Assembly: GCF_022201045.2 (NCBI RefSeq)
Contig: NC_068558.1
Location: forward strand, 1,922,001 to 1,986,000
Reading direction: 5' to 3'
Source of the DNA: Citrus sinensis
Taxonomy: Eukaryota; Streptophyta; Magnoliopsida; Sapindales; Rutaceae
DNA length: 64,000 bases
Shown here: positions 44,719 through 63,410 of the stretch, in pieces
Position numbering within the stretch: the stretch's first letter is position 1
Layout: each line of letters opens with the position of its first letter
Program-made: the position numbers and the translations under genes
Notes under the pieces: model-generated
Told to the model about the DNA's origin: nothing
The model's input: the letters and a program-made list of their open reading frames with translations, nothing else
The model's database searches: none

Positions 44719-47700
44719 ATGGCGACCAAGTTGTTGGCACTAGCGTGCATAAGAAACGAGAGTTATGGGAACTTGTCGCCGAGGCCACACTACCCGTCGA
44801 TGCCAAAGTACCCGAAAGGCGTGTCGGCTGAAGAGACAGCGAACGTGGAGAGCTCGATGTCAAAGGCAAAGGCTGTGTATGCTGTGATGGGTATGACCTG
44901 CTCCGCCTGCGCTGGATCCGTCGAGAAAGCCATCAAACGACTTCCCGGAATACACGACGCCGTCGTCGATGTCTTGAATAATAGAGCTCTTGTCTTGTTC
45001 TACCCGTCCTTTGTTAACGTAAGTTCTTACGTTACTCTTTTTATTTTTTATTAATATACAGCGTAGCAAGCGTTTAATATTTAATATATAATTCCAATTT
45101 TCTTTTGTTTATTTGTTATATAATTAATTACAAACTATATACATACAGTATAATGATTCAACGTCTTGTTAAACCCGGATAGGTATCAGAATTCTTTTAT
45201 TTGATTACTAAGCTGGCAGTTGCTTCTTTTTTTGGGTTTGTATTCTTCTGCTTGTGCCATGAACAAATGTTTTAAACAACTTGTTTGGTGTAATTTGTTT
45301 CTGTAATACGGATTTTTCTTTTAATGAAAAAGATAGACTCATTGTAAATTCTATTTCTTATGAATTTTCCAGAACTGGTCCTGAATTCCTTTGCTTTTGA
45401 GTCACTGGTTAGCGATTTAGCACCAGCTTGCTTTTTCTTCCTTTTCGTCCAATTTGGTGCTTTACTTTGCCTTCGCAGTTAGTTGCGGACAATTGAGAGA
45501 TACGATATGTCTGCCATCATCATTATCAGAATATCACCATCTGTGCCCTTGATCATGACATACATATAATATATTTTATACAATAGTCAATGGGTGGATT
45601 TGGGCTTGTAGATGTTAAATCATCATTGACTATGGGCCTCGGGCTATATATGCTTGCTACCCCCTGAATATTGAACTTGTAATTTGCCATTGACATCAAT
45701 AACGTGTGGTTAGTTGCATCTTTACGTTCTCTTCACAGGAGGAGACAATTCGTGAGACCATTGAGGATGTTGGATTTCAAGCAACATTAATCCAAGATGA
45801 AACATCTGATAAATCAACTCAACTATGTCGTATTGGAATCAATGGAATGACATGCACTACTTGCTCCACAACTGTTGAGAAAGCTTTGCAAGCAATTCCT
45901 GGTGTCCAAAATGTCCGAGTGGCCTTAGCTACTGAAGCAGCAGAAGTACACTATGATCCGAAAATTCTAAACTACAATCAGATTTTGGCAGCTATTGAGG
46001 ATACTGGATTTGAAGCCACACTAATCAGCACAGGAGAAGATATGAGTAAAATTCATCTTCAGGTTGATGGCATAAGGACTGATCATTCCATGAGAATGAT
46101 TGAAAATTCACTCCAGGCACTTCCTGGAGTTCACGGCATTGGAGTGGATTCTGGAGTACATAAGATTGCCATTTCTTACAAGCCAGATATGACAGGACCC
46201 AGAAACTTTATGAAAGTCATAGAATCAACTGGTTCCGGCCGTTTTAAGGCCAGGATCTTTCCTGAAGGTGGAGGGGGAAGAGAAAATCTGAAACAGGAAG
46301 AAATTAAGCAATATTATAGATCCTTCCTTTGGAGTTTGGTTTTTACAATTCCTGTTTTTTTAACCTCCATGGTCTTCATGTATATCCCAGGAATCAAGCA
46401 TGGCCTGGATACCAAAATAGTCAATATGCTTACCATTGGAGAGATTATAAGGTGGGTGCTATCAACTCCTGTGCAATTCATTATAGGCAGAAGATTCTAC
46501 ACCGGTTCTTACAAAGCATTGCGCCATGGTTCTGCGAATATGGATGTTTTGATTGCCCTGGGAACTAATACAGCTTACTTCTATTCAGTGTACTCTGTAT
46601 TAAGAGCTGCTACTTCTCCGCACTTTGAAGGTACAGATTTTTTTGAGACTAGTTCAATGCTTATATCCTTTATTCTGCTTGGAAAATATCTGGAGGTTCT
46701 CGCCAAGGGAAAGACATCTGAGGCAATTGCGAAGCTCATGGACTTAGCACCTGAAACAGCAACTTTGCTGACTTTAGACGAGGAAGGCAATGTGATAAGC
46801 GAAGAAGAAATAGATAGTAGGTTGATACAGAGGAATGATGTAATTAAAATTATTCCTGGTGCAAAAGTAGCTTCAGATGGTTACGTTTTGTGGGGACAGA
46901 GCCATGTAAATGAGAGTATGATAACTGGAGAGGCAAGGCCAGTGGCTAAGAGGAAGGGTGATACAGTAATTGGTGGCACTGTGAATGAGAATGGGGTGCT
47001 ACATATTAAGGCAACAAGGGTTGGATCAGAGAGTGCTCTTGCTCAAATTGTTCGACTAGTGGAATCAGCTCAGATGGCTAAGGCTCCAGTTCAGAAGTTC
47101 GCTGATCGTATTTCAAAATACTTTGTGCCTCTGGTAACTGTAGAATATGATTCATTATGTTCTGCATTTGTTCTATAGATACTTTTAAGTAGAGTCTTAT
47201 GAAAATGTATGCTTTCTTGTTAATAAAACAGTTCTTTTTTTTCCCCTTTTCTTTTAGGTCATCATCCTGTCATTTTCGACATGGCTTGCTTGGTTTTTAG
47301 CTGGAAAGTTCCATGGCTACCCGGAATCCTGGATACCATCTTCGATGGATAGCTTTCAGCTTGCACTACAGTTTGGAATCTCCGTTATGGTCATAGCGTG
47401 TCCATGTGCGCTAGGCCTAGCGACTCCAACTGCCGTAATGGTTGGAACTGGAGTTGGGGCATCTCAAGGAGTACTGATTAAAGGGGGTCAGGCCTTGGAA
47501 AGTGCACATAAGGTTAGCATATGCTGTCATGTTGCTCTTTGCTACATGCTACACGTACAATGACTGGAATCGGTTTCTTATGGTTGTGTGCGACAATCTT
47601 GTAGGTGAATTGCATTGTGTTTGACAAAACTGGAACTCTGACAGTTGGAAAGCCGGTAGTTGTCAACACAAAGCTTTTGAAAAATATGGTGCTGAGAGAC

Positions 47701-48818
47701 TTCTATGAACTTATTGCTGCAACTGAGGTATGCTTTATTTTCCGTGGAAATCTTACCCTTTAAGAGAGTCCGTCAAGGTTGTAGTTGCTTATAATATAAC
47801 CAATGATAATATCTGTTGCTGTCTATCTACCAGGCTAACAGTGAGCACCCATTGGGGAAGGCTATTGTTGAATATGCTAAGAAGTTTAGAGAAGATGAAG
47901 ACAATCCTCTCTGGCCAGAAGCACATGATTTTATCTCCATCACTGGCCATGGAGTTAAAGCCACGGTGCATAACAAGGAAATAATGGTGGGAAACAAGAG
48001 CTTGATGTTGGATAATAACATTGACATACCACCTGATGCTGAAGAAATGCTAGCAGAAACAGAGGGAATGGCTCAAACCGGGATCTTAGTATCTATTGAT
48101 GGAGAATTGACTGGAGTTTTAGCCATATCCGATCCACTGAAACCGGGTGCTCATGAAGTCATTTCCATTCTAAAGTCGATGCAAGTGAGAAGCATCGTGG
48201 TGACAGGCGACAACTGGGGAACTGCCAAATCCATTGCCCATGAAGTTGGAATTGAAGATGTTATAGCTGAAGCCAAACCTGAACAGAAAGCAGAGAAAGT
48301 GAAGGAATTACAGGTACAATGCAAATTATCTGCATCTCATATATGCATGTTTCGCACTTGTACGTATCGATTACATACAAGATTCATTATCTTGTTGACA
48401 GGCTTCAGGATATACCGTGGCAATGGTGGGAGATGGCATCAATGACTCGCCAGCACTTGTAGCAGCAGATGTTGGAATGGCAATTGGTGCAGGCACGGAC
48501 ATTGCAATAGAGGCAGCTGATATTGTCCTGATGAAGAGTAATTTGGAGGATGTCATAACTGCTATAGACTTGTCGAGGAAAACTTTTTCGCGTATTCGTC
48601 TGAACTACATTTGGGCTCTGGGTTATAACCTTTTAGGCATACCAATTGCTGCGGGAGCCCTTTTCCCGACTACCGGATTCCGTTTACCTCCATGGATTGC
48701 TGGAGCTGCAATGGCAGCCTCTTCAGTAAGTGTTGTTTGCTGCTCTCTGTTGCTGAAATATTACAAGAGGCCTAAGAAGCTGAATAATCTTGAGATTCGT
48801 GGAATTATGATAGAGTGA
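44719..48818 (+). CDS. HMA5: Copper-transporting P1B-type ATPase HMA5, copy a, 989 aa
   Basis: Six exons: 44719-45018, 45739-47133, 47258-47512, 47605-47727, 47834-48313 and 48402-48818, together 2970 nt in frame. HMA5 pumps Cu(I) out of the cytosol using ATP. In Arabidopsis it acts in roots in copper detoxification and takes copper from ATX1-type chaperones. Two N-terminal HMA domains carry GMTCSAC (Cys61, Cys64) and GMTCTTC (Cys139, Cys142). A third HMA-like repeat (about residues 173-240) has no cysteines. Eight membrane spans are expected. The copper site is CPC (613-615), the phosphorylated aspartate is Asp657 in DKTGT, the P1B-specific SEHPL has His696, and the hinge is [10 protein letters not shown] (861-870). 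The actuator motif [10 protein letters not shown] is intact. All motifs are present, so the gene should be functional. The second gene copy follows 3.2 kb downstream in the same orientation. Confidence 0.96.
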
Positions 48819-52037: not shown

Positions 52038-55000
52038 ATGGCGACCAGCAAGTTGCTGGCATTGGCTTGTATACGAAACGAGAGTAGTAGTTATAGGGAC
52101 TTGTTGACATCGACACTCAAGTACCCGAAAGTTGTGTCGGGTCCGGTAAAGTCCTGCAGCAGAGCAATATTATTATCGGTGAAGGGAATGACTTGCTCGG
52201 CCTGTGCAGTGTCCATCGAGAAAGCCATCAAACGCCTTCCTGGAATACACGACGCCGTCGTTGATGTCTTGAATAACAGGGCTCAAGTCTTGTTCTACCC
52301 CTTTTTCGTTAACGTAAGTAATTTATAATTATAGTTAACATAACTAATGTTACTTTTAATGATCTTTTTCTTTTTTGCATTTGCATCTCTCTTTTACATG
52401 TAGCTTGTTTTGTTAGCTCTGCTGACAGCTGCTCCTGAATTTCTTAATCTTTGCTTCCGAATTACTCTTATTAGTTGAATACATATATATATATAGGACA
52501 AACTTCTTATTTTTTCAGGGCGTTTAGTTCCTCTCCAACTCCATCCCATCACTGTCGTATTTTCTGGCTTTGAGATTTGCGTTTTTGCTTTCATTTTGTC
52601 CATTTCTTGCTTCTAATTTAGGATTGCAGTTTGTGAGGTCATTTGGCAGCTGCTATACGTTTGCTATCGCATTCATCATATAATTACATACCGTATAATA
52701 ATAATTCTAAACCATACTCAGTACTCACTTCAAGAGTGGTTCGTTCTTTATTATTATTATTATTATTATTTTTACTCCTTATCCGAGATAATAAGTGCAG
52801 CCACGGTTCGAATGAATTTGGCTGGGACTGCATAAGATTGAAGTAAGGACCTCAGGTTTATTCTTGATATGAGCCCTAAACCTCGGACGCTTTAGCCCTT
52901 GTTTGACTGAAAAAACTCACTCATTTTTACAATCCATACTGACTGATACTAACGTAATTTACTCCACAAATATACTTTTTCTAGCGAAACAAGAAAACGT
53001 TACCATATCATATTCAATTAATGTGTAAGTTTTTTTTTTAATATCGTCAAGGAGGAGACAATTCTTGAGGCAATTGAGGGTGTTGGATTTAAAGCAACGC
53101 TCGTCCCTGGGGAAACAATTGAGAAATCTACTCAAGTATGTCGAATACGCATTAAGAAACTAACATGCACTTCATGCTCCTCGACTGTTGAAAAAACTTT
53201 TCAAGCAATTCAGGGTGTACAGAATGCCCATGTCACCTTAGCTACTGAAGAAGCAGAAGTTCACTACGATCCGAGAATTCTGAGCTGCAATCAGCTTTTG
53301 AAAGCTATTGAAGATACTGGATTTGAAGCCATACCAATCAGCACAGGAGAAGACATCGTAAGCAAGATCCATCTTCACCTTGATGGCCTATATACTGATC
53401 ATTCAGTGACAATGATTGAAAGTTCTCTTCAAGCGCTCCCCGGCGTTCTTGACATTGACTTGGATCCTAGCATACATAAAATTTCCATTTCTTACAAGCC
53501 AGCCATGACAGGACCCAGAAACTTTATAAAAATGATAGAATCAACTGCTTCTGGGCATTTTAAGGCCAGAATATTTCCTGAAGGTGAAGGAAGAGAAGCG
53601 CAGAAACAGGCAGAGATTAAGAAATACTACAGATCATTTCTATGGAGTTTGGCTTTTACAATTCCTGTTTTTTTAACCTCCATGGTCTTCATGTATATCC
53701 CAGGAATCAAGAATGTACTGGATACCAAAATAGTTAATATGCTTACCATTGGAGAGATTATAAGGTGGGTGCTATCAACTCCTGTGCAGTTCATTGTAGG
53801 CAGAAGATTCTACACCGGTTCTTACAAAGCTTTGCGCATTGGTTCTCCTAATATGGATGTTTTGATTGCCCTGGGAACTAATGCAGCTTACTTTTATTCG
53901 GTTTACTCAGTGTTGAGAGCAGCTCTTTCTCCATATTTTATAGGTAAAGATTTTTTCGAGACTAGTTCAATGCTTATATCCTTTATTCTGCTTGGAAAAT
54001 ACCTAGAAGTTCTGGCCAAGGGAAAGACATCTGAGGCTATTGCCAAGCTTTTGGACTTGGCACCCGAAGCAGCGACACTGCTGACTATGGATGAGGAAGG
54101 CAATGTGATAAGCGAAGAAGAAATTGATAGTCGATTGATACAAAGGAATGATGTAATTAAAATTATTCCTGGTGCAAAAGTAGCTTCAGATGGTTATGTT
54201 TTGTGGGGAAAAAGCTATGTGAATGAGAGTATGATAACCGGAGAAGCGTGGCCAGTGGCCAAGAGGGAGGGTGATACAGTGACCGGTGGCACTTTGAATG
54301 AGAATGGGGTGTTACATATTAAGGCAACAAGGGTTGGATCAGAGAGTGCTCTTGCTCAAATTGTTCGACTTGTCGAATCAGCTCAGATGGCTAAGGCTCC
54401 AGTTCAAAAGTTCGCTGATCGCGCTTCCAAATACTTTGTGCCTCTGGTAATTTTACAACATAATTGTTCTAGGTTCTGCAATTTTCTATGAATACTTTGA
54501 GGAATCTAAAGTAAATTTCCAGTTTTTTATTAATAAATATCTCTGTTCTTTCTGAGGTCATCATCTTGTCATTTTCAACATGGCTTGCTTGGTATTTGGC
54601 TGGAAATTTCCATAGCTACCCAGAATCCTGGATACCATCTTCAATGGATAGCTTTGAGCTTGCACTACAGTTTGGAATCTCTGTCATGGTCATAGCGTGT
54701 CCATGTGCTCTGGGCCTAGCAACTCCGACTGCTGTAATGGTTGGTACTGGAGTTGGTGCATCTCAGGGAGTACTGATTAAAGGGGGACAAGCACTTGAAA
54801 GTACCCATAAGGTTAGCAATGCCCTTAATGTTGCTGTTTAATACTAGTTTATTCTTATTTATTTATTTTTTCACAAAGACTTGAATTGATAACCAACTGC
54901 TCTGTTAAAAATAATGTAGGTGAATTGCATTGTGTTTGACAAAACCGGAACTATGACAATTGGAAAGCCGGTCGTTGTTAATACAAAACTTTTGAAAAAT

Positions 55001-56145
55001 ATGGTACTAAGAGACTTCTATGAACTTGTTGCCGCAACTGAGGTATTTTTTTTTTTCGGTTTTTTTGGTCTGTTGGAGATATTGTTCTTTTAAGAGAGCT
55101 GGTCATAGTCATTATTGCTTATAATGAATTGACTATTGATACCATTTGTTGCAATTCATCTTCTAGGCTCACAGTGAGCATCCATTAGCCAAGGCTATCA
55201 TTGAATATGCTAATAAGTTTAGAGAAGATGAAGAGAATCCTATGTGGCCAGAAGCTCAAGATTTTGTCTCCATTACTGGCCATGGAGTGAAAGCCATCGT
55301 GCGAAACAAGGAGATAATGATCGGAAATAAGAGCTTGATGTTGGATAATAACATTGACATACCACATGATACTGAAGAAATGCTAACCGAAACTGAAGGA
55401 ATGGCTCAAACTGAGATCCTAGTATCTGTAGACGGGGAATTGACTGGAGTTTTATCCATATCTGATCCATTGAAACCAGGTGCTCATGAGGTCATTTCCA
55501 TTCTAAAGTCAATGCAAATAAGGAGCATCTTGGTGACAGGTGACAATTGGGGAACTGCCAAATCTATTGCAAGCGAAGTTGGAATTGAAACTGTTATAGC
55601 TGAAGCCAAACCTGAACAGAAAGCGGAGAAAGTGGAGGAGTTACAGGTATAATGCAAATTACTCCGTTTCATTTATGTACGTTTTATGTTTGTTCCATTA
55701 CATTGAAGAATCATTATCCTGTTGACAGGCTTCAGGATATACCGTGGCAATGGTGGGAGATGGCATCAATGACTCACCAGCACTTGTAGCAGCAGATGTC
55801 GGAATGGCAATTGGTGCTGGCACAGACATTGCCATAGAGGCGGCTGATATTGTCCTAATGAAGAGTAACTTGGAGGACGTGATTACTGCCATTGACTTGT
55901 CGAGGAAAACCTTTTCGCGTATTCGCATCAACTACATTTGGGCTTTGGGTTATAACCTTCTTGGCATACCAATTGCTGCAGGAGCCTTTTTCCCGACTAC
56001 TAGATTCCGCTTACCACCATGGATCGCTGGAGCTGCAATGGCAACCTCTTCAGTTAGTGTGGTTTGCAGTTCTCTATTGTTGAAGAATTACAAGAAGCCT
56101 AAAAGGCTGAACAACCTTGAGATCCATGAGATTTTGACCGAGTGA
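52038..56145 (+). CDS. HMA5: Copper-transporting P1B-type ATPase HMA5, copy b, 981 aa
   Basis: Six exons: 52038-52313, 53052-54446, 54557-54811, 54920-55042, 55167-55646 and 55729-56145, together 2946 nt in frame. Exons 2-6 have exactly the same lengths as in copy a. Only exon 1 differs, by 24 nt, because the N-terminal linker is shorter. HMA1 keeps GMTCSAC (Cys53, Cys56). HMA2 keeps both cysteines (131, 134), but the preceding Gly-Met has become Lys-Leu (KLTCTSC). CPC lies at 605-607, DKTGT has Asp649 (reading [11 protein letters not shown]), SEHPL has His688 and GDGIND is at 853-858. The actuator reads [11 protein letters not shown] where copy a and Arabidopsis have [11 protein letters not shown]. 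There are no disabling changes, so this is a tandem paralogue that may have changed copper affinity or expression. It is convergent with GSTT copy A. Confidence 0.95.
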
Positions 56146-56665: not shown

Positions 56666-59424
56666 TTAATGCAATGTTGTGTTAGAGCTAGATGAAGATC
56701 CGCTGCTAGCTCCCAATGATTGCTGCTTTTGCAGATTCTCTTTGACTTTGAAGAGGACTTCGTGCACCTCATCAAAGTGTGGTCTCGTTGCATTTTTTGT
56801 GCTCTCAATCCACTGTTGCACTTTCTTGTGTGGGCCCATTAATCCAATTCGATCTTCCTCATCCAAAAGCTAAATCCAAAAAAATACATTCCATTGCAAG
56901 ATCTCATATAACCCATACCATATGTTAAAGACTTCAAGTAAATAGAATTTTGAAAATGTTTGTCTTTAAGCCGTGTTCATAACATAATAAGCATTCAGTC
57001 AATCCATACCTCCAGCTGCATTGTTTCACACACTAGGCTGAGATCTGCTATGGATGGTTGATTGCTACCCACCAAGAACCGTCCACTCCCCTTGAGCCAA
57101 AAAGACTCGATCTTTGAGAGAGAGGAGGACAAAATTTTCTTACCTTTGGCAGCTGCTTCTGGATTCAGTGGAAGGCCAACCACAGGTGCTAGTTTATGAT
57201 TAAAAACATATTTGACTGAACAGAAAAACACATAATAAAAATCATTAGAAAATGGAAAACTTGAAAAAGTACACTCTTCAGGACATCATTGGTCATTAAT
57301 GAAGACTGTGATAGCGGCATCCACTGTTGAATCAATCCCTATCAAGTATCTGAAATGCTCTTTGCATTTCATGCTTATCATATATCTACTGCCTATTTGA
57401 TCCATGAACATATTTTCTTGTATTAAGAGCTTCCATGTTGGGCACCATCTTGATGTCATAGTTGTAAATGTTTGATGAACTTGAAATTTGGCAAGTTTAA
57501 ATAGTGTAAGAAAGACAAAATCCAATGGTGGGTTTTTAAAAAATGCTTATTTTATAAAAAATATATTAAAGGATGTAGTTCATATAAAAGAAAAACATCA
57601 TTGTAAGAAGAAATATATTTTTTGCATGATGGTTACAGCTTACAAGGTACCTGTACCCAAACGTAAATTAGAATGATGCCAATCCAGGACTGAATGAATC
57701 TTGGCTCTCTTCAAAAGATCATTGGGATACCTTAAAACATGAAACAATTGTTGGAAATAGGTGGTGGAACATATAAAATGGAACTGAAGATGGAATACAA
57801 TAGATAATTTTGATATTATTAGTATTTTTCACAATGAGAACACAAAACGTAAAGTTAACAATGTAAGTTCATGCAGTATGCATCAAGTTAAAAGACATAT
57901 ATTTAGTGTGGTTATGCATCAAGTTAACAGCAAAGCAGGTAACAAACATGGGATGCTGTTGGTATTGCCCATCGCCATCATCTCTACCTTAAAGTTAAGC
58001 ATCCATGCAGGAAGTCATGTCTTAATCTAACATTGAAATTATACCAGTAAAGTGGTCAGTAAAAGTATTGTTTATTCTTTGCCCGGACAAATTTCTAATA
58101 CCTTACCATGACCAACTCCACATCATACCTCGTGTTTAAGAAACTCAAGCAAGGAATGAAACTGAGATATTTAGTTGTTTACCTCAAACTGGTGAGCAAG
58201 TACTTACCAATGATCTGCCACTCCAGGAAATGCACAGGAGAGATAAGTAAGAATGGCATGACTGCAAAGAAATAAATAGATACATCAGTCAGTGTAACAT
58301 AAAATTTTGGTTATGACCTATTCCACCATCAAAAAAGGGGCACACAAGAGTCCTTTGAATAGACTAAAGTATTAACAAGATTTCTGAAAGACACCAAAAA
58401 AAAAAAAAAATCTCAAATTGCATAACATCATCTCTCACTCTCTCTTTTTTCTTTTTTTCTTTTTTGGGTTGGCTTTTGGCGAAGAAATGCATAACATAAG
58501 CTCTAATTTCTTAGAATTCATCAAAAGTAAGACCTTAACCTAGAGATTTGAAACGCTATTAAACATATTACCTCTCAAACAGCTTCAATCTGCCATCAAC
58601 AATAGCTGGTACTTTCGCCATAGGGTTTATGTCTGTCAAAACAGCAACAAAGCAAAGGTTACAAACTGAATTTTTTTTTTTTCTTTCCAATGTGCTATTG
58701 CTATCTCTGTGAAAACACAGCACTGGCAATTCAGTTTTTATCACCCAAAAGTTAAAGTAATCCGAAACCCCCATCACTTCCAAAGGCCTAGAAACTTTGT
58801 AAGCTTTTATACCCTTGATTTTAGTCAATAAAATAAGCAATTCCAAAATCTTATAGATGTATCAGTCACCAGTGTTCCTACACTAGTTGAGTTGGTATAT
58901 ATCATGTTCTCAATTCAACAGCTAAACACACAATACAGTAACCGTCAGTATGCCCACAATTCTCATATTTTTCTAATACGATTGTCTCCTTCAGTACAAA
59001 TTTACCATGGGTTTCAATTTTCATCAGCCAAAAAAAAAAAAAATTAATAATAATAATAATTCAAATTAACCCATTAAAATATTCAACAAATAATCATGAT
59101 CTTGATCTGTATCAGAATTTAAATTGATATTTGATACAACAAGGCTGGTCAAATGAATGATCATTAAAAGACCAGACCAGAAAGTTTTACCTTTGAACTC
59201 GGGAGAGTGTTGCTCACGGTTGGCTAACTTGACTTCAATCTCTTCAAAATCTATTCCATTGACCCTGAATACAAATAAGTGAGATGATATTAGCATATCT
59301 TAAAAGAACAGTAAAAAAGAACTTAGAAGTTTATCAAATGGCAGTGAATATAGGACTACTTGCAGAAGATAATAACAGCCCGAGATGGCTGTGACAGTCG
59401 ATCCGCGTATACTTTCAGCTTCAT
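56666..59424 (-). CDS. GSTT: Theta-class glutathione S-transferase, copy A, 247 aa, lacking the peroxisomal tail
   Basis: Seven exons, high to low: 59424-59360, 59264-59191, 58632-58572, 58261-58208, 57730-57651, 57215-57010 and 56869-56666, together 744 nt in frame. Theta GSTs conjugate or reduce with glutathione and in plants have glutathione peroxidase activity on organic hydroperoxides. The thioredoxin-fold N-terminal domain starts MKLKVYADRLSQPSRA, with catalytic Ser11. VPAIVDGRLKLFES is the glutathione-binding gamma-site region. The all-helical C-terminal domain has HSVLDWHHSNLR and GSNQPSIADLSLVCE. The protein ends TTLH. In copy B and in Arabidopsis GSTT1 the same position is followed by Ser-Lys-Ile, a type 1 peroxisome signal. 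Here the serine codon is TAA. The next codons (AAA, ATG, TGA) line up with AAA, ATC, TGA of copy B, so this is a single-base loss of the signal. Confidence 0.92.
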
Positions 59425-60466
59425 TTTGCTTTCTTTCGCTCGCTGACACTAACTACTGGCGATGTTATGAAATTGTGTTCTGTTGGTTTCAATCCTCGAC
59501 TCATGCTTATCGGGGCAAACCGGGATGATTATTTTATAATTATCATATTATTTCTTCAACAGCGGAGCCACTGACACGGAGACGCGTGCAGTTACAATTT
59601 CACTGTCTGCGCTAGTACAAATATTTTGTATGATTTTCTTCCCTCCATTATACAAACATCGTCGTGCCATGTCGTTGGATTGGATTTGATTTGGAACGAT
59701 TAATTGGACGTCCCTTGCAAAGCGACAACATTTGGACATGTCGCCTTTGCCCCGTCCGTCTTCTAGACTCTAATTTAACTGCAGTAGCCCTGTCCGCAAT
59801 ATTAAGGTGACCGCGACCGCGAGGAGGCTTCGCAGCTCACTTGTGGGTCCACACCATATGACTGTAAATCCGTCGCATTGCTTCTCTCAGTGAAATGATA
59901 AATAAAAATGGTGACCACTCTTAAGTCTCTTATCTCATCTCTCCGGAATCCGAATCCTCTCATAGCCCATAGGAAAGATGTAAGACGATAATTCAAACAA
60001 AAAAATAAATTCATTTTCAAAATGCGACCGTCACCAAACTTTCCCGTGAACGACAACGAGTTATCGTTAGGAGGTGGAAGTCTGAGCTGATGACCATGCT
60101 GCAATGTAAATATGTAATGTCAAATTTATTTCTTGATATATTTACCAACTTCAGAAACCAATATATAACTAATAATCGAAGGCCGCTTGTGAATTGTGAT
60201 TTGTATTAGCGAATTGTTACTAGTAATTCCCTTTTGGTTTAGGTAGGATCCCATATTATTATTATTATTATTATTATTGCATTCCCTTTTAACAATTCGT
60301 TGGTACGAGAATCCCCGTACAATCTGAACTTTTTAAGAAGGCTCCATTATATTTAAACATATCTGTGCCAGCTTCAAGTATCATCATTATTCAATCTCTA
60401 CAACTACAACGCTGTAGCCTTAAGCCAAGCTTCTTCGAAGAAAAGAAATGTTCTGCAAATATTTTC
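59425..60466. other. Spacer between the two GSTT genes
   Basis: It contains the promoter side of GSTT-A and the 3' side of GSTT-B, with an ATT microsatellite at about 60253-60278. Open frames on the minus strand at 59548-59739 and 59802-60104 show no family resemblance and are not called. Confidence 0.45.
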
Positions 60467-63410
60467 TCAGATTTTTGAATGCAGGCTAGTTTTATGGCTA
60501 GTCGCAGTTCCGCTGCTAGCCCCGGTTCCCAATAATTGCCGCTTTTGCAGATTCTCTTTGACTTTGAAGAGGACTTTATGCACTTCATCAAAGTGCGGCC
60601 TCGTTGCTCTTCTCGTGCTCTCAATCCACTCTTGCACTTTCTTGTGTGGGCCTAGCAATCGAGTTCGGTCTTCCTCGTCCAAAAGCTAAATCCAAAAAAT
60701 ACATTTTATTACAAGATCTCATTCGGTATAGACAGGACCCAAACCATATTAAGAGAAGAAGTAAACAGAATTCTAAACATATTTATAGTGTTCTTTAAGC
60801 TGTGATGACAACATAGTAAGCATTCAGTCAATCCATACCTCCAGCTCCATTATTTCACACACTAGGCTTATGTCTGCTATCGATGGTTGATTGCTACCCA
60901 CCAAGAACCGTCCACTCCCCTTGAGCCAAAAGGACTCTATTTTTGAGAGAGATGAGGACAAAATTTTCTCAGCTTCAGCAGCTGCTTCTGGATTCAGCGG
61001 AAGGCCAAGTGCAGGTGCTAGTTTTTTATTTAAAACAAATTTGGCTGAACAGACAAAGATCATGTTGTACAACATCAGGACATGAAAACTTGAAAAAGGT
61101 CATTGATATAACTGGAACATATGCACAAACAAAATGGCATGTTCAGTCCTAATAGCAATGACTAAAGCTAAAGAAGACAAGTATGCTCAAAGATAAAATC
61201 TGACGGGTGCTACCCAAAAATCCACTCTGCATTGGGTGACTGTGTCATTTAATCAATCCAACTATAATAGCAGCAGTTGTTGAATCAAATGCATATCAAG
61301 TTATGCAAAGCAAATTTCATGCTCATCAGATATCTCTACCTATACGATCCATGAATATATTTTTCTTGTACACTAAATCTTCCATTTTGGGCACCATCAT
61401 GATGTCTTAGTTCGAAATATTTGATGATCTTGAATCCGCAAGTGTAAATAGTGTGTGAAAGACAAAATCCCATAGTAAGTTTTCCGAAATGCTTATTTTA
61501 TAAAAAATTATTAAAAGGGTATAATTCATATAAACTAAAACACTAATCTAAGTTGAAATATATATATTTGCAAGTTGGTTGCAAAGTACCTGCACCAAAG
61601 CGTAAATTAGAGTGATGCCAATCCAACACTGAGTGAATCCTGGCTCTCTTCGAAAGGTCATTGGGATACCTTAAAATATGAAGCAGTTGTTAGAAGTTAG
61701 AACTAGGAAGCTGAACATGTAAATTGGAACCAGGTAGCAGATCATTTTGATAACATTAAAATATGTTTTAAATGAAAATACGGAACATATAGGCAACATT
61801 GAAACCTATGCGTTAAGTTAAAAGAAACATGTTTAGTTTGGTCATGCACCATGTTAATAGATACATAAAAACAGAAAAACTGATAGCAAATATGGCTCTC
61901 GATTGATGTTTTCTAATTGTCTTCATTTCTGCCCTATAGTGAAGCATCCATGTACCAAGCCAATAGCCATTCCCCGGTCTAAAATTGAAAATATATCAGT
62001 AAAATGGCCAGAGAAATCTGTTTTGCTTTAGATTTTCAGATACTATGCAAGGACCAACTCCATATTCATACCCCTTGCTTATGGAGCTAATGTAAAATGG
62101 AATACAGGAGAAATATAACTAAAACTGAGAAGTAATTACTTACCAATGATCTGCTACTCCAGGAAATGCACAAGCAAGATAGATAAGAATTGCATGACTG
62201 CAAAGAAATATATAACTACATTAGCCAAGAAATCATAAAACTTTGATTACAACATATTCGATCTTTAAAGAAAGTGGTGGCAAAGAAAGAAGGGCGTGGG
62301 GTGTGTGGTGGGGGAGGGAGAGGAAGTGGGGTTGCCGACCAGAGAGCCCTTTTAAACAGGCTAAAGTATAAACCAGACCTTACAGAGGCGAAAAATATAT
62401 TACCAAGCACTTCAAATTGCAAGACATCAGCTATAACTGCTTATAGTAAGAACTTAACCTAGAGATTCAAAACTCCATTAAACATATTACCTCTCAAACA
62501 GCTTCAATCTCCCATCAATAATAGCAGGCACTTTTGCCATAGGGTTTATTTCTGTCAAAACAGCATAAAAAATTATAAACTGAACTTCTCTCTTTGTATC
62601 CACCTAAAAGCAGACCAGCATAGTTCAATTTTTATTCCCCAAAATTTTCAGTAATCCAAAAACCCATGATTCTAATCACTTAAACTAAAATTGACCTAGT
62701 GATTTTCAAGCAAATTTATTTGGCTGGCCACCTAAGTTCGAATCTTGGGGAGATGGGGGTTAAAAAATTAATTCAAGCTTTATCCACCCTCTACCTTTAA
62801 AAAGAAGATATGAAAAAAAAATGATTCCAAACTTTTAGATTTATGACTCATCAAAGCTTTCATGCTTTCAGTTCAACAGCTAATAACATGACACAGTAGC
62901 CGTTAATCTACCCACAATTACAAATTTCTCATTTTATATAATACGATTATTTGTCTAGTTTAAATTCAACATGCATTCAGCTGACCTGACCAGCTCCATT
63001 TTGTTAACATCAAACGCAGAACTTCGATTTAACACATTAAAAATAACAAGATCCATGGGTACGAGTAATCTATCGATGGATAAAATTCAACGAATATAAT
63101 CATGATCCATATCAGAATCTAAAATGAAATAACAGGCACCTGCACAGCACGTCTCAAAAGGCTATGATTATTCACAAAGCAGTAAATTGTACCTTTGAAT
63201 TCAGGAGAGTATTGTTCACGCTTTGCTAACCTAACTTCAATCTCCTCAAAGTCTAATCCATTTACCCTGAACATAGGAGACATGATATTAAAATTTTCTC
63301 AAAAGAAAACTGAAATTCGTACAGCGTAGATGGATATGGGATTACTTGCAAAAGATTATGACAGCGCGAGATGGCTGTGACATCCGATCGGCATATACTT
63401 TCAGCTTCAT
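60467..63410 (-). CDS. GSTT: Theta-class glutathione S-transferase, copy B, 252 aa, with SKI peroxisomal tail
   Basis: Seven exons, high to low: 63410-63346, 63266-63193, 62551-62491, 62197-62144, 61669-61590, 61044-60839 and 60685-60467, together 759 nt in frame. The first six exons have the same lengths as in copy A. The N-terminus MKLKVYADRMSQPSRAVIIF carries catalytic Ser11. NPMAKVPAIIDGRLKLFES, WYPNDLSKRARIHSVLDWHH, LAPALGLPLNPEAAAEAEK and GSNQPSIADISLVCE follow the Arabidopsis GSTT1 sequence closely. The C-terminus is HSKI, a recognised peroxisome import signal in plant theta GSTs. It probably removes lipid hydroperoxides in peroxisomes. This copy appears to keep the ancestral state of the pair. 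Confidence 0.94.
62690..62815 (+). repeat. Possible tRNA-derived SINE relic in GSTT-B intron 2
   Basis: TGACCTAGTGATTTT resembles a polymerase III A box and AGTTCGAATCTTGGGG resembles a B box about 45 bases later. The sequence ends in an A-rich run with several T-to-A simple repeats near 62810-62821. No flanking duplication could be fixed. The element is short and diverged. Confidence 0.35.

What the first reader, a model, noticed from the sequence alone, without database searches (positions are those of the whole stretch)
56666..60700. One GSTT paralogue has lost its peroxisome signal by a single-base stop
The last 60 bases of the two coding regions align without gaps. Copy B ends CAT TCA AAA ATC TGA (His-Ser-Lys-Ile). 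Copy A ends CAT TAA AAA ATG TGA. One C-to-A change turned the serine codon of the SKI tail into a stop, and the former Ile codon is already ATG. Everything upstream, including Ser11, is intact. The likely outcome is a cytosolic theta GST beside a peroxisomal one, so subfunctionalisation by relocation. In Arabidopsis the GSTT cluster is known to make peroxisomal enzymes.
Basis: partly seen in the sequence, partly recalled or inferred. Interest (0 to 1): 0.75.

Follow-up and report, generated by a model that had tools for sequence, protein, structure and literature searches.

The report
Citrus theta GST lacking peroxisome tag
In a citrus genome, one of two neighbouring copies of a detoxifying enzyme gene has a stop codon just before the three-residue tag that sends such enzymes to the peroxisome, so its protein probably stays in the cytosol, although early gene decay is not ruled out.

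Summary
The stop is real. Copy A (seven exons, 59424..56666, minus strand, 247 aa) ends TTLH-TAA, then AAA ATG TGA; copy B (63410..60467, 252 aa) ends SLHSKI-TGA. These are the only theta GST loci the genome search found; the genome is Citrus. Plant theta GSTs carry SK[I/M] tails (PMC6540824) and both tails are validated PTS1s (PMC3427985), so loss in A is the likely direction, and A's ATG codon can be an old SKM tail rather than decay.

The pair is old (dS 0.41) and constrained (dN/dS 0.20); long neutrality of A is unlikely. No credible PTS1 lies just downstream.

Two cautions were missed: A alone has a strong donor-like site inside exon 6 (AAG|GTAAGA, after base 57144), the best U1 match of 146 GT sites in the gene, whose use would truncate the protein; and if A dimerises with B it could ride into peroxisomes.

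A mainly cytosolic enzyme is the best reading (0.55). Subfunctionalisation is not shown. It is a new instance of a known phenomenon.

The parts
56666..59424 (-). Copy A: theta GST gene, exons 59424-59360, 59264-59191, 58632-58572, 58261-58208, 57730-57651, 57215-57010, 56869-56666; 247 aa, no PTS1
   Evidence: frame open, GT..AG at all 6 introns; GST_N over the Pfam cut-off
56666..56668 (-). TAA stop in A (codon 248) at the position of the PTS1 serine codon
56657..56665 (-). Former last codons of A, AAA ATG TGA (K-M-stop), now 3' untranslated
57138..57146 (-). A-specific donor-like site AAG|GTAAGA inside exon 6 (last exonic base would be 57144); B has GAAGCTGAG where A has AAAGGTAAG
   Evidence: strongest U1 pairing of 146 GT sites in gene A; absent from B; use with the exon 7 acceptor removes 134 nt and shifts the frame
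60467..63410 (-). Copy B: theta GST gene, exons 63410-63346, 63266-63193, 62551-62491, 62197-62144, 61669-61590, 61044-60839, 60685-60467; 252 aa, ends SKI
   Evidence: GST_N over the Pfam cut-off
60467..60478 (-). PTS1 SKI plus stop of copy B (TCA AAA ATC TGA)
   Evidence: SKI is in the table of validated plant PTS1 tripeptides (PMC3427985, Table A1)

Best explanation
Two theta GST genes in tandem descend from one gene with an SK[I/M] tail. Both evolved under constraint for most of the time since duplication. Later a single substitution in copy A turned the serine codon of the tail into TAA. A now makes a 247-residue enzyme whose body is complete but which ends TTLH and lacks a PTS1. The import receptor PEX5 (recalled biology) should not recognise it, so it should stay in the cytosol, while B keeps the peroxisomal role. 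Shown: the stop, the complete gene structure, constraint over most of the history, and no credible PTS1 just downstream. Inferred: direction of change, expression, localisation and activity.
For: Sequence of both tails and gene models. dS 0.408 (0.299-0.546), dN 0.081 (0.059-0.108), dN/dS 0.199 (0.123-0.314) over 247 codons. If A had been neutral throughout, about 117 nonsynonymous changes would be expected on its branch, against 44 on both branches together; the simulated chance of no stop upstream of the last three codons is then 0.0045-0.0075, and 0.042-0.068 if neutral for half the time. With a recalled, unverified Arabidopsis GSTT1 as outgroup, 15 replacements fall on A, 11 on B, 8 undetermined, P = 0.56. 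SK[I/M] is the usual plant GSTT tail and the class is peroxisomal (PMC6540824; PMC10565873). SKI and SKM are validated plant PTS1s (PMC3427985). From the last exon of A to 1 kb beyond its stop, three frames, 64 stops, the only validated tripeptide before a stop is SSM at 55698, about 970 bases downstream in the span of the convergent neighbouring gene; the same scan of B gave its own SKI and one chance VKL at 59592 among 68 stops. Read-through would give X-K-M; of seven X tried (Q, Y, K, E, S, L, W) only S gives a listed tripeptide.
Against: No orthologue of A was available, so the direction and age of the stop are untested, and it could be private to this assembly or haplotype. Three adjacent A-side replacements (E135K, A136G, E137K; placed on A by the recalled outgroup) create a strong donor-like site in exon 6. 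No transcript evidence: the two theta ESTs reported for sweet orange gave no spliced alignment and were not profiled (PMC3922800). If A dimerises with B it may still enter peroxisomes. PMC10565873 itself notes a caution about the plant localisation experiments.
Confidence: 0.55

Rival explanations
1. Copy A is at an early stage of decay. The PTS1 stop and the new exon-6 donor-like site are tolerated because A no longer matters; B does the work.
For: Three nonsynonymous differences within nine bases (GAAGCTGAG in B, AAAGGTAAG in A) give the strongest U1 pairing of all 146 GT sites in the gene; its use would truncate the protein to 138 residues. A slight, non-significant excess of replacements on A, 15 against 11. 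With neutrality over only the last 5-10% of the time since duplication, a frame clean upstream of the tail is common, 49-73% of simulations.
Against: All six introns keep GT..AG and the frame is open up to the tail. The one stop lies in the 2.8% of routes that remove only the tail; a clean frame plus a stop in the last three codons came up in at most 1.1% of neutral simulations in any setting. Long neutrality is unlikely.
Confidence: 0.27
2. A is still partly peroxisomal because it dimerises with B and is carried in by B's PTS1. The loss then tunes how much enzyme goes to each compartment.
For: Peroxisomes can import oligomers in which only some subunits carry a PTS, shown in cell culture with an oilseed isocitrate lyase (PMC4680570). 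[quoted passage not shown] Plant Ser-GSTs with solved structures are homodimers, though none of these is a GSTT (PMC6540824). A and B are 207 of 247 residues identical.
Against: A:B dimerisation and co-expression are untested. PMC4680570 argues that most of a piggybacked hetero-oligomer remains in the cytosol.
Confidence: 0.12
3. The stop is an allele of one haplotype or an assembly error, and other citrus copies of A keep the tail.
For: The sweet orange genome is described as highly heterozygous (PMC3922800), and only one assembly could be read here.
Against: The stop is a clean substitution in an otherwise good gene; I saw nothing in the flanking sequence that suggests an error.
Confidence: 0.06

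Closest known systems
Arabidopsis GSTT1-GSTT3 cluster (peroxisomal theta GSTs)
   Same: Tandem theta GSTs; the class has seven exons, SQPS and an SK[I/M] tail (PMC6540824), as copy B has
   Different: Copy A here has no PTS1
G6PD isoform pair of grasses (PMC12125578)
   Same: One isoform is called solely cytosolic because of its C-terminal end (PTLA) and the other carries a PTS1
   Different: There an extra residue follows a weak PTS1 and the partner has a stronger one; here a stop removes a validated PTS1
Subcellular relocalisation after gene duplication in plants (PMC7086175, PMC4202327)
   Same: Change of organelle targeting on one duplicate; 1,072 of 19,353 duplications (5.5%) against 2.2% at non-duplication nodes (PMC7086175)
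   Different: Those are surveys over all organelles; the PTS1 list of PMC7086175 has nine tripeptides and omits SKI, so loss of an SKI tail would be missed there

Membership tests
Plant theta-class GST (GSTT) | SQPS active-site motif with Ser near position 10 | tested here: met
   Ser11 in SQPS in both A and B; feature from PMC6540824
Plant theta-class GST (GSTT) | Seven exons, about 250 residues | tested here: met
   Seven exons each; 247 and 252 aa; feature from PMC6540824
Plant theta-class GST (GSTT) | Closest solved relatives are theta GSTs | tested here: met
   The four best PDB matches of A (1ljr, 4mpf, 2c3q, 2c3n; E about 1e-30) against 5e-17 for the next (60 of 105 matches shown). Three are named theta; that 1ljr, named only GST, is theta is recalled. 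B was not searched against the PDB.
GST fold by Pfam | N- and C-terminal GST domain models over their cut-offs | tested here: inconclusive
   GST_N over cut-off in both; the C-terminal models stay below cut-off in both (GST_C_2: A 20.0, B 23.3, cut-off 24.9), so A does not differ from B in kind
Plant theta-class GST (GSTT) | C-terminal SK[I/M] | tested here: not met
   Copy A ends TTLH, not met; copy B ends SKI, met. The class is set by sequence, so A is a theta GST by the other features but not a PTS1 protein.
Plant theta-class GST (GSTT) | GSH-dependent peroxidase activity on lipid peroxides | not testable with these tools
   needs recombinant enzyme
PTS1 peroxisomal protein | Validated plant PTS1 tripeptide at the C-terminus | tested here: not met
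   A not met, B met, against Table A1 of PMC3427985
Processed or old pseudogene | Lost introns, broken frame or splice sites, relaxed dN/dS | tested here: not met
   A keeps all introns, frame and splice sites; pair dN/dS 0.20
Recent pseudogene | No correct transcript or active product | not testable with these tools
   no reads or proteomics at hand; the exon-6 donor-like site is a warning

The most novel reading that the evidence does not exclude
The stop turned the pair into a dose-set sorting system: A:B heterodimers carry one PTS1 instead of two, so the level of correctly spliced A, itself set by use of the new exon-6 donor, would decide how much theta GST stays in the cytosol and how much reaches the peroxisome.
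Probability: 0.05. Interest if true: 0.6.

Novelty: new member of a known kind. Interest (0 to 1): 0.32.

Why it matters
[quoted passage not shown] Here one base separates a tagged from an untagged paralogue in a crop genus, so a cytosolic and a peroxisomal theta GST can be compared directly. If A is decaying instead, it is an ordinary case of gene loss.

Tried and rejected
A restored PTS1 by an alternative 3' end: not supported in the 1.2 kb read from the start of the last exon (three frames, 64 stops, one validated tripeptide, SSM at 55698). With the stricter pattern [SAC][KR][LMI] there was none in that stretch; in the wider scan of the whole gene A locus the one hit was CKL ending at 57633 in intron 5, in a frame that is not the coding frame (the frame was read by eye). 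Stop-codon read-through to a PTS1: rejected; of the X-K-M tripeptides tried only SKM is validated. A further theta paralogue: none found by protein or DNA search, but these searches score only the best candidates, and the GST_N family search (67 matches) did not list A or B themselves, whose domain is split over exons, so a diverged third copy is not excluded. Old pseudogene: rejected. Outgroup sequences: the genome sets held are prokaryotic and G000 has no relatives there, and the solved theta GSTs matched are distant, so the placing of single changes rests on a recalled sequence. For this reason I ran no scan of viral contigs or genome contigs. I ran no structure prediction, since the proteins are spliced and the tool asks for proteins that the DNA gives letter for letter. 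Literature: searches on plant GSTT and peroxisomes (11 of 11 papers listed; 15: 1 of 1; 26: 3 of 3; 35: 3 of 3; 49: 7 of 7), on Citrus GSTs (7: 18 of 18; 21: 20 of 33; 36: 10 of 21), on relocalisation (22: 20 of 50) and piggyback import (37: 12 of 30); no listed title or start of abstract describes this stop. Most subscription papers are not held. Passages of PMC11449216, PMC9328179 (which calls SKI a canonical PTS1) and PMC4138524 added nothing further.

Full report
What is there. The window lies in a plant genome of 299.7 Mb in 11 contigs. It is Citrus: a 209-residue ABA receptor read from locus L041 matches the solved CSPYL1 chain 6zuc at 209 of 209 residues, and the next species (SlPYL1) scores far lower; that 'Cs' there means Citrus sinensis is recalled. 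The species within Citrus was not determined. Two theta-class GST genes stand head to tail on the minus strand of contig C3. Copy A spans 59424..56666 and copy B 63410..60467. Each has seven exons with GT..AG introns and an open frame of 247 (A) or 252 (B) codons. A protein search with A gave 12 exon matches, all in these two genes. A DNA search with gene A gave 9 matches: itself, five in gene B, and three short ones of 35 to 53 bases on C5, C7 and C9. Both searches score only the best candidates.

The observation. A ends CAT TAA AAA ATG TGA and B ends CAT TCA AAA ATC TGA. Ser11 and the SQPS motif are present in both. The core observation is confirmed.

Direction of change. The review PMC6540824 (passages and section 5 part 1 read) says plant GSTTs have seven exons, are about 250 residues long, carry SQPS and a C-terminal SK[I/M], and are peroxisomal, citing Dixon et al. 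2009, which is not held here. PMC10565873 (passages) lists Arabidopsis GSTT1-3 as peroxisomal but notes a caution about the localisation experiments. PMC3427985 (passages and Table A1) lists both SKI and SKM among validated plant PTS1 tripeptides. So a tagged ancestor is likely, and A's ATG codon can be read as an SKM tail that was there before the stop, without a second mutation after it. No orthologue sequence could be read here, so this stays an inference. The same review counts two GSTT genes in Citrus clementina v1.0 and one in Citrus sinensis v1.1; an old pair with incomplete annotation in one of them would fit.

Age and constraint. Nei-Gojobori distances over 247 aligned codons are dS 0.408 (bootstrap 95% 0.299-0.546), dN 0.081 (0.059-0.108), ratio 0.199 (0.123-0.314); the six introns are 54-84% identical. 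If A had been free of constraint since duplication, about 117 nonsynonymous changes would be expected on its branch, but there are 44 on both branches together. In simulation a fully neutral A is free of stops upstream of its last three codons in 0.45-0.75% of runs, one neutral for half the time in 4-7%, and one neutral for the last 5-10% in 49-73% (4,000 runs per setting). A clean frame together with a stop in the last three codons came up in at most 1.1% of runs in any setting. So A was probably a working gene for most of its life, and recent decay remains possible. With a recalled, unverified Arabidopsis GSTT1 as outgroup, 15 replacements fall on A, 11 on B and 8 cannot be placed (P = 0.56).

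Is the tag rescued? In three frames from the last exon of A to 1 kb beyond its stop, 64 stops were examined. One is preceded by a validated plant PTS1 tripeptide (SSM, ending at 55698), about 970 bases downstream in the span of the convergent neighbouring gene; the matching stretch of B also holds one such chance hit (VKL, 59592) beside its real SKI, among 68 stops. With the stricter pattern there was none in A's stretch, and one, CKL in intron 5 at 57633, out of the coding frame, in the whole locus. Read-through of the TAA would give X-K-M; of the seven residues tried only serine makes a listed tripeptide.

In exon 6, B reads GAAGCTGAG and A reads AAAGGTAAG. The three differences replace Glu-Ala-Glu by Lys-Gly-Lys and create AAG|GTAAGA (last exonic base 57144). 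Of the 146 GT sites in gene A this has the strongest computed pairing with U1 (-9.5 kcal/mol; the true exon-6 donor scores -6.3). B has no such site there; its best exonic site scores -7.9 and is also present in A. Joined to the exon-7 acceptor, the new site would remove 134 bases and end the protein after 138 residues. U1 pairing alone does not prove use: the exon-1 donors of both genes score only -1.6. But this is the strongest sign in the sequence that A may be failing.

How it most likely works. A's product has a GST body like B's with no peroxisome tag, so import by the PTS1 receptor should fail and the protein should stay in the cytosol, beside a peroxisomal B. This is inferred from established PTS1 biology. 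Two things could change it: mis-splicing of A, and import of A together with B. Piggyback import of PTS1-less subunits is known, shown among others with an oilseed isocitrate lyase in cell culture (PMC4680570, abstract and opening text), and Arabidopsis G6PD isoforms may enter as heterodimers (PMC12125578, abstract and other passages). In sweet orange two theta ESTs were found, neither gave a spliced alignment, and theta genes were left out of expression tests (PMC3922800, abstract and other passages), so expression of A is unknown.

Known or new. Change of organelle targeting after duplication is a described phenomenon: 1,072 of 19,353 plant duplications (5.5%) against 2.2% at other nodes (PMC7086175, passages), and peroxisomal examples exist (PMC4202327, passages). 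The PTS1 list of PMC7086175 omits SKI, so cases like this would be under-counted there. The case is a clean new instance, not a new kind. No title or start of abstract listed describes it; three of these lists were cut at 20 and two at 10 or 12 papers.

Noticed in passing
57138-57146: A-specific strong donor-like site inside exon 6 of copy A, from three nonsynonymous differences within nine bases.
   Followed up: yes
45706-48445 and 53298-56145: Two similar sets of open frames in tandem that look like heavy-metal (copper) P-type ATPases (name recalled, similarity seen by eye, no family search run), so a second head-to-tail duplication lies next to the GSTT pair; the nearer copy converges on copy A.
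   Followed up: no
own genome, contigs C4 (about 21.0-22.6 Mb) and C9 (about 21.8-22.2 Mb): Clusters of GST N-terminal domain matches, several with in-frame stops (67 matches in the whole genome).
   Followed up: no
56870-57009 (A) against 60686-60838 (B): Intron 6 is 84% identical between the copies while introns 1-5 are 54-70%, perhaps partial gene conversion at the 3' end or a conserved element.
   Followed up: no
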